Assembly (NCBI GenBank): GCA_021773365.1
Contig: JAJFKF010000145.1
Coordinates: 1 to 64,000, forward strand
Length of the DNA: 64,000 bases
Origin: Gammaproteobacteria bacterium
GTDB lineage: Bacteria; Pseudomonadota; Gammaproteobacteria; Steroidobacterales; Steroidobacteraceae
Reading direction: 5' to 3'
Shown: one piece after another, positions 5,676-7,399 of the stretch
How positions within the stretch are numbered: the first letter of the stretch is position 1
How the letters are laid out: each line of letters starts with the position of its first letter
Made by a program: the position numbers and the translations under genes
The notes under the pieces: generated by a model
The model's database searches: none
What the model saw: only the letters and a program-made list of their open reading frames with translations
What the model was told of the DNA's origin: nothing

Positions 5676-5764
5676 GCGTGGCGTCTGACCGGGGGAAGTT
5701 ATCCACAGTTTAAGGGGGGGATTCCCATAAACTGTGGATAACTTCCCCCGGTCAGACGCCACGC
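5676..5764. repeat. 37-bp-arm perfect palindrome with two inverted DnaA boxes
   Basis: Left arm 5676-5712 and right arm 5728-5764 are exact reverse complements (37 of 37), separated by 15 bases that themselves contain a G-run and CCC. Each arm carries the consensus DnaA box TTATCCACA: at 5699-5707 on the plus strand and 5733-5741 on the minus strand. The right arm covers the stop codon and last codons of the DUF374 acyltransferase gene. It could form a very stable hairpin and act as a transcript end, be a small mobile palindromic element, or bind DnaA. Only the symmetry and boxes are seen directly. Confidence 0.95.
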
Positions 5765-6498
5765 CCTCCACTGCCCATCCTTTGCATCTCCCACGCCTGC
5801 TCAAACAACCGCTGCATCCTCGCCTCCATCTCCCGCTGTATCCGCTCAACCTCGGCATCATCCGCCCCCCTCGGCACGAACAAAGGCTCCCCCACTACCA
5901 GGACCACCCGCGTAAACGGCCGCGGAATCACGAACCGGTCCCAGGTACGCAGCACCCAGGCATGCCGGGCCGACCAGGCCAGCGGTACCAGCGGCGCACC
6001 CGAGAGCTGGGCCAGCTTGACCACACCCGGCTTGAACTGCGAATGCGGACCGGAGGGTCCGTCCGGCGTCACCCCAATGGAAATACCTTCGCGCATCAGC
6101 GCCTTGCTCATCGCGCGCAGCGCCTGTGCGCCACCCGCCGTCGTCGACCCGCGAAAGACCAGCCCGCCGCCTATGCGCCTGGCCACTGCGGCAGGCACTT
6201 CCCCATCAACCGAAGCGCTGATCAGCCAGCCGATGCGTGCGCCACGGCCGATCAATCCGCACAGATACCGCCAGCACAGCAGCTGATGGCGATGCCAGTA
6301 ACAGACCACCGCCGTTTGCCCGGAAAGCAGACGGCCTTCCAGGTATTCGCCGCCTTGCACACGTTCGATCCGACAGGTCGACCAGAACAGCCGGAGCAGC
6401 CCCACGCCGATGGGCACCAACAGTGCGTATCCCATGCGCCGCAGAGGCGTCAGCTGCCGCTTGGTACGCTTAGCGCTCTTTTGTCGAATTCTTCGCAT
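5752..6498 (-). CDS. DUF374-family lysophospholipid acyltransferase-like protein
   Basis: 248 residues from ATG 6498, chosen because the reading frame upstream lies inside the preceding gene and lacks family character. It overlaps that gene by 29 bp. The DUF374 domain is seen in TAVVCYWHRHQLLCWRYL (the HRxxLL-type acyltransferase box), LVFRGSTTAGGAQALRAM and ISIGVTPDGPSGPHSQFKPG, all characteristic of this family. One N-terminal hydrophobic segment (about 22-40) may anchor it in the inner membrane. It is the last gene of a three-gene operon with two LpxL-type acyltransferases, so a role in acylating lipid A or another envelope lipid is likely but inferred from position. Confidence 0.88.
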   Translation of the reverse strand: MRRIRQKSAKRTKRQLTPLRRMGYALLVPIGVGLLRLFWSTCRIERVQGGEYLEGRLLSGQTAVVCYWHRHQLLCWRYLCGLIGRGARIGWLISASVDGEVPAAVARRIGGGLVFRGSTTAGGAQALRAMSKALMREGISIGVTPDGPSGPHSQFKPGVVKLAQLSGAPLVPLAWSARHAWVLRTWDRFVIPRPFTRVVLVVGEPLFVPRGADDAEVERIQREMEARMQRLFEQAWEMQRMGSGGRGV

Positions 6499-7399
6499 AG
6501 TAGTTCGGATAGTCCTTGCCCACGCCCTTGAAGCGGCGGTGGATCCACAGATACTGCTCGGGCACGCGACGCACCTGCGCTTCGACCAGTGCATTCAGCC
6601 GCGTCGCATCGGCCAGCGCGTCGCCGCTGGGGAAATTATCCAGCGCCGGGTAAATCACTGCGCGATAACCCCGCGCGCCTGGCAGGCGCTCGGGAAAATA
6701 GGGCAACACCACTGCCCCGGTGGTGCGCGCCAGGCGTGAAGTGGCCGAGTTGGTGCCGGCGGCAATGCCGAAGAACGGCGCCATCACCGCACCCTTGTGC
6801 CGATAGGCCTGATCCGGCGCATACCAGACACTCTCGTTGGCCCGCAGCGCGCCCACCAGCGTGCGCACATCGTCACGGGGAATCGCGCGCCTTGAGCGGC
6901 GCGCGCGCACTTTGCCGAGGACGTAGGCCAGCGCACGGTTCTTCGACGGCCGGTACATGATGTTCACCGGCGCACGCGCGGTCAAAGCCCGGGCGCCGAT
7001 CTCCAGCGCGGTGAAATGCGCCGAGAACAGGATGGCGCCGTGACCCTGCGCCAGGGCGGCCTGAATATGCTCCATACCCTCGACCTGGATCAATCCGATG
7101 ATGCGGCGATCCGAAGCCCACCAGCTCAGCGCGGTCTCGAAAGGCGCCAGACCCAGACTGCGGAAGTGACGCCTCAGCAGCTGCTCCCTCGCTGGTTCAT
7201 CGAGCTCAGGGAAACACAGCTCAAGGTTCCGACTGGCAATGCGTACATAGCGCAACGGCAGACGGCGCACCACTGCGCCCAGCAATGCTCCGAGAATGGT
7301 CAGTACCCGGTATGGCAACAGTGCCGAAATGCGCAACAACCCCAAGCCGATCCACGTCGGCCAGTAGCGCGGCGCCAACAGGTTCAACTGGAATTTCAT
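6470..7399 (-). CDS. LpxL/LpxM-type lipid A acyltransferase (second copy)
   Basis: 309 residues starting at ATG 7399, which overlaps the stop of the upstream paralog by the 4-bp ATGA arrangement. Like the LpxL/HtrB family it starts with a hydrophobic anchor (LAPRYWPTWIGLGLLRISAL) and has the catalytic HX4E box as SAHFTALEIGAR, with RPSKNRALAYVL and the later WYAPDQAYRHKG box. Members transfer a secondary acyl chain from acyl-ACP to Kdo2-lipid A at the inner face of the inner membrane. The adjacent paralog shares the same landmarks, so the pair may supply the two secondary acylations (LpxL then LpxM), although which does which cannot be decided here. Confidence 0.92.
   Translation of the reverse strand: MKFQLNLLAPRYWPTWIGLGLLRISALLPYRVLTILGALLGAVVRRLPLRYVRIASRNLELCFPELDEPAREQLLRRHFRSLGLAPFETALSWWASDRRIIGLIQVEGMEHIQAALAQGHGAILFSAHFTALEIGARALTARAPVNIMYRPSKNRALAYVLGKVRARRSRRAIPRDDVRTLVGALRANESVWYAPDQAYRHKGAVMAPFFGIAAGTNSATSRLARTTGAVVLPYFPERLPGARGYRAVIYPALDNFPSGDALADATRLNALVEAQVRRVPEQYLWIHRRFKGVGKDYPNYYAKNSTKER

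What the first reader, a model, noticed from the sequence alone, without database searches (positions are those of the whole stretch)
5676..5764. 37-bp perfect palindrome with two inverted consensus DnaA boxes
The arms match at all 37 positions, far more than a terminator needs, and each contains TTATCCACA exactly. It lies at the end of the lipid acyltransferase operon, overlapping the stop codon. Possibilities: a DnaA-binding or titration site, a replication-coupled regulator of envelope genes, a small palindromic mobile element, or a recombination-made inverted repeat.
Basis: seen in the sequence. Interest (0 to 1): 0.62.

Follow-up and report, generated by a model that had tools for sequence, protein, structure and literature searches.

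The report
Dispersed DNA hairpins with matching arms
The palindrome is one of about 55-60 copies of a small, probably mobile DNA hairpin scattered through this bacterial genome: nearly every copy keeps two back-to-back DnaA-box-like sequences, but its outer stem differs from copy to copy while still matching itself almost perfectly, which suggests that one arm is repeatedly rewritten from the other.

Summary
In detail: window 5676-5764 is a 41-nt inverted repeat (40/41 paired) with an exact TTATCCACA in each arm. It is not unique. A covariance search finds about 58 places in the 3.97-Mb genome. They share a 45-49 nt core, GTTATCCACA...TGTGGATAAC; four copies have a longer interior (111-115 nt). 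In the roughly 280 kb of this genome read (overlaps counted twice), every exact TTATCCACA lies in a copy. Outside the core each copy carries its own 12-25 bp stem. These outer stems are about 38% alike between copies, yet 97% Watson-Crick paired within each, with 270 double-sided changes and few one-sided ones. Core mismatches, by contrast, are shared between copies. Copies sit mostly just 3' of genes, lack a U-tract, and twice lie in frame inside genes (NAD kinase, lhr); there, loop lengths in relatives suggest that the whole palindrome was inserted. Best reading: a REP/REPIN-like mobile hairpin family, found only in this genome among those searched, whose stems are renewed by arm-to-arm copying (hairpin template switching). 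DnaA titration is possible but untested. No mobilising enzyme is proven; one weak Y1/HUH-like gene with a DnaA-domain-like tail exists.

The parts
5676..5697 (.). left outer arm, copy-specific sequence (22 bp), complementary to 5743-5764
5698..5742 (+). conserved core of the repeat family, GTTATCCACAGTTTAAGGGGGGGATTCCCATAAACTGTGGATAAC
5699..5707 (+). exact DnaA-box consensus TTATCCACA, left half of the core
5733..5741 (-). exact DnaA-box consensus TTATCCACA, right half of the core, inverted
5743..5764 (.). right outer arm, copy-specific; contains the stop codon (5752-5754) of the neighbouring gene
5752..6594 (-). neighbouring gene, DUF374 lysophospholipid acyltransferase-like, whose 3' end overlaps the right arm (context, not part of the repeat)

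Best explanation
The palindrome is one copy of a small non-coding mobile hairpin (REP/REPIN-like in kind), present at about 58 places in this genome and not found in the other genomes searched. Shown: a conserved apex (two inverted DnaA-box sequences around a GGG...CCC mini-hairpin, or in four copies a long interior), flanked by a copy-specific outer stem of 12-25 bp that is almost perfectly self-complementary. Inferred: the whole palindrome, apex and both outer arms, is what inserts; the apex is what a mobilising protein recognises, and its two DnaA boxes may also bind DnaA. Inferred: the outer stem is free to change, but changes in one arm are copied into the other when the hairpin forms on single-stranded DNA (snap-back synthesis primed from the core, or quasipalindrome template switching), at insertion or at later replications. 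Stems therefore diverge between copies and stay perfect within a copy.
For: About 58 places by covariance model and about 50 by BLAST. 270 cells changed on both sides against 85 in shuffles; covariation 0.578 against 0.150, and 0.10-0.16 for slid partners. Outer columns 9-22: 409 of 420 cells Watson-Crick, 3 G.T, 6 A.C, 2 other; outer arms 38% identical between copies against 86% for cores. Core mismatches are shared between copies and one-sided (GTTACCCACA left, TATGGATAAC right) while the outer arms of the same copies pair almost perfectly. Free hairpins with such long arms were not found in the genome DNA read. In-frame insertions in NAD kinase and lhr: removing the whole palindrome gives loops of 14 and 7 aa, against 10-12 and 2-12 aa in most relatives. 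Some outer arms are shared by copies with unrelated flanks, more often than in shuffles. Template switching that makes and keeps perfect stems is documented (PMC8794818, PMC8604942, PMC7202029).
Against: No sister genome of the same genus was available, so no empty site was seen at nucleotide level. The alignment used for pair counts was chosen for copies with at least 12 paired outer bases, apart from one added by hand. No mobilising gene is linked to the element. Symmetric changes could in part come from strong selection for pairing.
Confidence: 0.6

Rival explanations
1. Inverted target duplication: only the core is mobile. On insertion its 3' end folds back and copies about 20 nt of the adjacent target strand, so one outer arm is native and the other is its inverted copy.
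For: Outer arms are unique to most copies, end abruptly at 12-25 bp, and have no source elsewhere in the genome. Shared core mismatches beside perfect outer arms fit synthesis primed from the core. Left flanks beyond the arm are G-rich like the left arm.
Against: Native loops in NAD kinase and lhr would then be about 20 and 15 aa, longer than in most relatives. Three copies share a related arm (GCGCCGTT..CCGG) with unrelated flanks, and arms in register are more alike than shuffles.
Confidence: 0.2
2. Selected RNA stem: a 3'-UTR hairpin (mRNA stabiliser or terminator) kept by ordinary compensatory evolution.
For: Most copies lie within about 50 nt of a stop codon; the fold is very stable; REPs are known mostly downstream of genes (PMC3733652).
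Against: Almost no G.U or other one-sided intermediates, no T-tract in 59 of 60 flanks tested, mixed orientation to genes, and two copies inside reading frames.
Confidence: 0.1
3. DnaA-binding or titration sites: the copies are kept because their paired boxes bind DnaA and buffer initiation.
For: Every exact TTATCCACA in the genome DNA read lies in a copy, and the boxes are the most conserved columns.
Against: Conservation is explained equally by recognition for movement; some copies carry TTACCCACA; no binding data; the position relative to oriC was not determined; it does not explain the matching outer arms.
Confidence: 0.07
4. Insertion of the core into pre-existing terminator-like hairpins, which supply both outer arms.
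For: Position downstream of genes; GC-rich arms.
Against: Free hairpins with 18-22 bp arms were not found in the genome DNA read; no T-tracts.
Confidence: 0.03

Closest known systems
REP / REPIN elements mobilised by RAYT (TnpA-REP) transposases (PMC3116915, PMC6006769)
   Same: Short extragenic palindromes in many copies in one genome, mostly downstream of genes, also found as closely spaced inverted pairs.
   Different: No conserved GTAG/GTRG foot (4 and 2 of 30 copies), no RAYT above cut-off in the genome, and the conserved part is the apex while the outer stem varies; in REPINs the REP ends are conserved and the spacer varies.
TIR repeats of TIRYT / HUH subclass 2.1 transposases (PMC3733652, PMC6006769)
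   Same: Self-complementary repeats in a genome with one weak Y1-like ORF that has a Bac_DnaA_C-like tail, as described for this subclass.
   Different: No GGGGWSAS motif in the copies and no copy within 1.5 kb of that ORF; the link is not shown.
Rickettsia palindromic elements
   Same: Palindromic elements that can sit in frame inside protein genes (own knowledge; named in papers found).
   Different: Here only two of about 58 copies are in genes; no sequence comparison was made.
Quasipalindrome correction by replication template switching (PMC8794818, PMC8604942, PMC7202029)
   Same: Makes or restores perfect arms in one event and gives double substitutions without intermediates.
   Different: Reported for RNA genes, yeast genes and E. 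coli; here proposed for a multicopy mobile hairpin family.
Coding palindromes of Nematomorpha mitochondria (PMC6649704)
   Same: Long perfect inverted repeats inside working genes.
   Different: There the arms encode conserved protein; here the palindromes are an inserted repeat family with a conserved apex.

Membership tests
REP/REPIN (RAYT-mobilised) | many dispersed, mostly extragenic palindromic copies | tested here: met
   about 58 places, nearly all intergenic
REP/REPIN (RAYT-mobilised) | GTAG/GTRG tetranucleotide at the hairpin foot | tested here: not met
   4 of 30 left and 2 of 30 right feet; 0.8 expected by chance per side
REP/REPIN (RAYT-mobilised) | RAYT gene in the genome flanked by the same repeat | tested here: not met
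   one Y1_Tnp match below cut-off and no core in its 3.2-kb locus
REP/REPIN (RAYT-mobilised) | movement shown or cleavage by the transposase | not testable with these tools
   needs strains or biochemistry
TIRYT-associated TIR repeats | GGGGWSAS motif | tested here: not met
   0 of 30 copies
TIRYT-associated TIR repeats | Y1 transposase with HTH / Bac_DnaA_C tail in the genome | tested here: inconclusive
   weak Y1_Tnp (17.5 bits) and Bac_DnaA_C (21.9 bits for the tail alone), both below cut-offs
DnaA-box cluster | exact consensus boxes | tested here: met
DnaA-box cluster | binds DnaA | not testable with these tools
   needs a binding assay
Intrinsic terminator | T-tract after the stem | tested here: not met
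   T4 within 10 nt in 1 of 60 flanks
Rickettsia-type palindromic element | in-frame insertion in protein genes | tested here: met
   NAD kinase and lhr copies, both open in frame; a small minority of copies

The most novel reading that the evidence does not exclude
A mobile hairpin family in which only the apex is inherited faithfully and the outer stem is rewritten in each copy by arm-to-arm DNA copying, recognised by a HUH transposase whose DnaA-like domain reads the DnaA boxes of the apex, so that its movement is tied to replication.
Probability: 0.12. Interest if true: 0.85.

Novelty: new variant of a known kind. Interest (0 to 1): 0.56.

Why it matters
Small palindromic repeats are common, but long perfect stems that differ in every copy are not their usual form. 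About 30 intact copies in one genome are a natural experiment on whether the arms of an inverted repeat stay complementary by selection or by DNA template switching; the near absence of one-sided states favours copying. The exclusive association with consensus DnaA boxes gives a simple, testable link to DnaA or to a DnaA-like transposase domain. Orthologous sites in a related genus, where different hairpins occupy the same positions or leave them empty, offer a place to watch turnover.

Tried and rejected
Rfam: only miRNA-precursor models far below gathering score, an effect of any perfect hairpin, and two weak chance matches. Viral contigs with inverted GTTATCCACA boxes: DnaA-box clusters, mostly without paired outer arms. 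Specific core in viral contigs: one hit without the palindrome. Phages: only 25-nt matches at E 0.8; plasmids: none. Genome-contig scan with the core pattern: none. 59 relatives by BLAST and 396 genomes of the order by exact pattern: only this genome has the family; two others have single inverted boxes with unrelated interiors. External source of the arms: no match elsewhere in the genome beyond chance. Homologs of the Y1-like ORF in genome contigs: none confirmed. PDB and NCBIfam matches to that ORF: none. Structure prediction of it was not attempted, because its locus came from a tool outside that tool's permitted list. The 53-bp arms of L192 and copies at noisy contig ends (L193, L200) were set aside as likely fold-back artefacts of assembly. 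attC, CRISPR and group II intron readings were considered and dropped: in attC the conserved parts are the outer core sites, and no arrays or intron domains were seen.

Full report
Observation. The window holds a 41-nt inverted repeat at 5676-5716 / 5724-5764, 98% complementary, with a 7-nt apex. Each arm has an exact TTATCCACA, the only two in 64 kb; chance expectation is 0.11. The palindrome is far stronger than shuffles (z -14.7) and than any other hairpin found in the window (next arm 15 bp). Its right arm contains the stop codon of a DUF374 acyltransferase-like gene.

It is a repeat. BLAST of the 89 bp against the whole genome (3.97 Mb, 157 contigs) gives about 50 places. A covariance model from 30 copies gives 58 places, 115 matches counting both strands. 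The conserved part is a 45-49 nt core, GTTATCCACA-n-TTTAAGGG(n)GATTCCCATAAA-n-TGTGGATAAC. Four further copies have a 111-115 nt core with the same box ends and a long interior, and one has a 62-nt core. Many copies end contigs, as expected for hairpins that break short-read assembly; some of the 58 places may therefore be two halves of one copy. In the own-genome DNA read (about 280 kb, overlaps counted twice), all 68 exact TTATCCACA occurrences lie in copies of the element; the five that the script scored as solitary are element halves at contig ends or in diverged copies.

The unusual property. Outside the core every copy has its own stem, usually 15-22 bp, that ends abruptly (up to 25 bp in a long copy). 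In the 30-copy alignment 270 cells are changed on both sides, against 85 in shuffles, with covariation score 0.578 against 0.150; slid partners give 0.10-0.16. In outer columns 9-22, 409 of 420 cells are Watson-Crick and only 3 are G.T, while the outer arms are 38% identical between copies and the cores 86%. Caveat: copies were chosen for at least 12 paired outer bases (one was added by hand), so the paired percentage is inflated. The double-change pattern is not produced by that choice, since unrelated arms would not pair at all. The few complete copies left out have indels or noisy contig-end sequence.

Why copying rather than compensatory selection. Stems evolving by selection on RNA normally show G.U intermediates; here one-sided states are nearly absent. 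Core mismatches are shared by several copies and always on one side (GTTACCCACA left, TATGGATAAC right), while the outer arms of the same copies pair almost perfectly. This is the expected footprint of synthesis primed by the core's own 3' end running outwards over the other arm. The core also has symmetric variants (columns 33, 36, 37), so copying can also start nearer the apex. Template switching that makes and maintains perfect hairpin arms is documented (PMC8794818, PMC8604942, PMC7202029).

Are the arms part of the insertion? Two copies lie in frame inside genes. In NAD kinase the variable loop is 41 aa; without the 27-aa palindrome it would be 14, and relatives have 10-12, one 17. In lhr the loop is 62 aa; without the 55-aa palindrome it would be 7. 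Relatives without palindromes have 2-12, one 28, and two relatives of another genus carry their own, different palindromes there. With only the core and one arm inserted, the native loops would be about 20 and 15. A copy between tRNA-Gly and tRNA-Thr leaves an 11-nt spacer when the whole palindrome is removed (the tRNA-Thr end was read by eye). Some arms are shared between copies with unrelated flanks. Together this favours insertion of the whole palindrome and argues against an inverted copy of the target, but no same-genus genome was held to prove it at nucleotide level.

Setting. Genes were called with a simple codon-usage script, not an annotation pipeline. Most copies lie within about 50 nt of a stop codon, in mixed orientation to the gene, without T-tracts. 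Seven pairs of oppositely oriented copies lie about 110-160 nt apart start to start, always plus then minus.

A related case. Genus g11 of the same family carries another hairpin family: conserved stem GGTGCCGGGTGGGGAAAGTGGGGAAA, variable symmetric inner stem, and in many copies a unique loop of about 31 nt. Orthologous sites in three g11 species are empty in some and occupied by different hairpins in others; one site (L334 / L374 / L375) has three different stems with 31-32 nt loops. These resemble REPINs or TIR repeats and show that hairpin turnover is common in this bacterial family. They do not prove the mechanism for the window's element.

Mobiliser. The only Y1_Tnp-like match in the genome is weak (19.1 bits, cut-off 23). 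Its ORF also has a weak Bac_DnaA_C-like C-terminal domain (21.9 bits for the tail alone, cut-off 31.5), the architecture described for HUH subclass 2.1 / TIRYT (PMC6006769, PMC3733652). No element lies within 1.5 kb of it, and no NCBIfam or solved-structure match was found. The link to DnaA boxes is therefore only a lead.

Verdict. This is a new variant of a known kind: a REP-like dispersed palindrome, found only in this genome among those searched, with an inverted-DnaA-box apex and outer stems that differ between copies yet match within each. That it is a dispersed repeat is near certain. Mobility is inferred from copy number and in-gene insertions. Arm-to-arm copying is the best explanation (about 0.6). 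A DnaA function is possible and untested.

Noticed in passing
G010, G030, G339 (genus g11, same family): L311-L337, L368-L387: Another hairpin family with a conserved stem, symmetric variable inner stem and unique loops of about 31 nt; orthologous sites are empty or hold different hairpins in sister species.
   Followed up: partly
L276:3-2300 (-), L282, L287: The lhr helicase gene carries in-frame palindromes of unrelated sequence at the same loop in three genomes of two genera.
   Followed up: partly
L388:808-1863 (-), G000:C142: Divergent Y1/HUH transposase-like ORF with a HMH motif and a weak Bac_DnaA_C-like C-terminal domain; no homolog confirmed in genome contigs.
   Followed up: partly
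L192:1-160; L193 and L200 contig ends: Contig ends where the sequence folds back over the hairpin or becomes noisy; probably assembly or sequencing artefacts caused by the palindromes.
   Followed up: no
L064:1501-1537 (G322:C15) and L065 (G252:C63): Single inverted-DnaA-box palindromes in another family of the order, one with 11-bp matching outer arms, with unrelated interiors.
   Followed up: no
window 15287-41192, minus strand: Five TonB-dependent receptor-like genes of about 1,090-1,105 aa on one strand within 26 kb.
   Followed up: no
L201:53-129: A copy of the element lies between a tRNA-Gly(tcc) gene and a tRNA-Thr-like sequence in a tRNA cluster.
   Followed up: no
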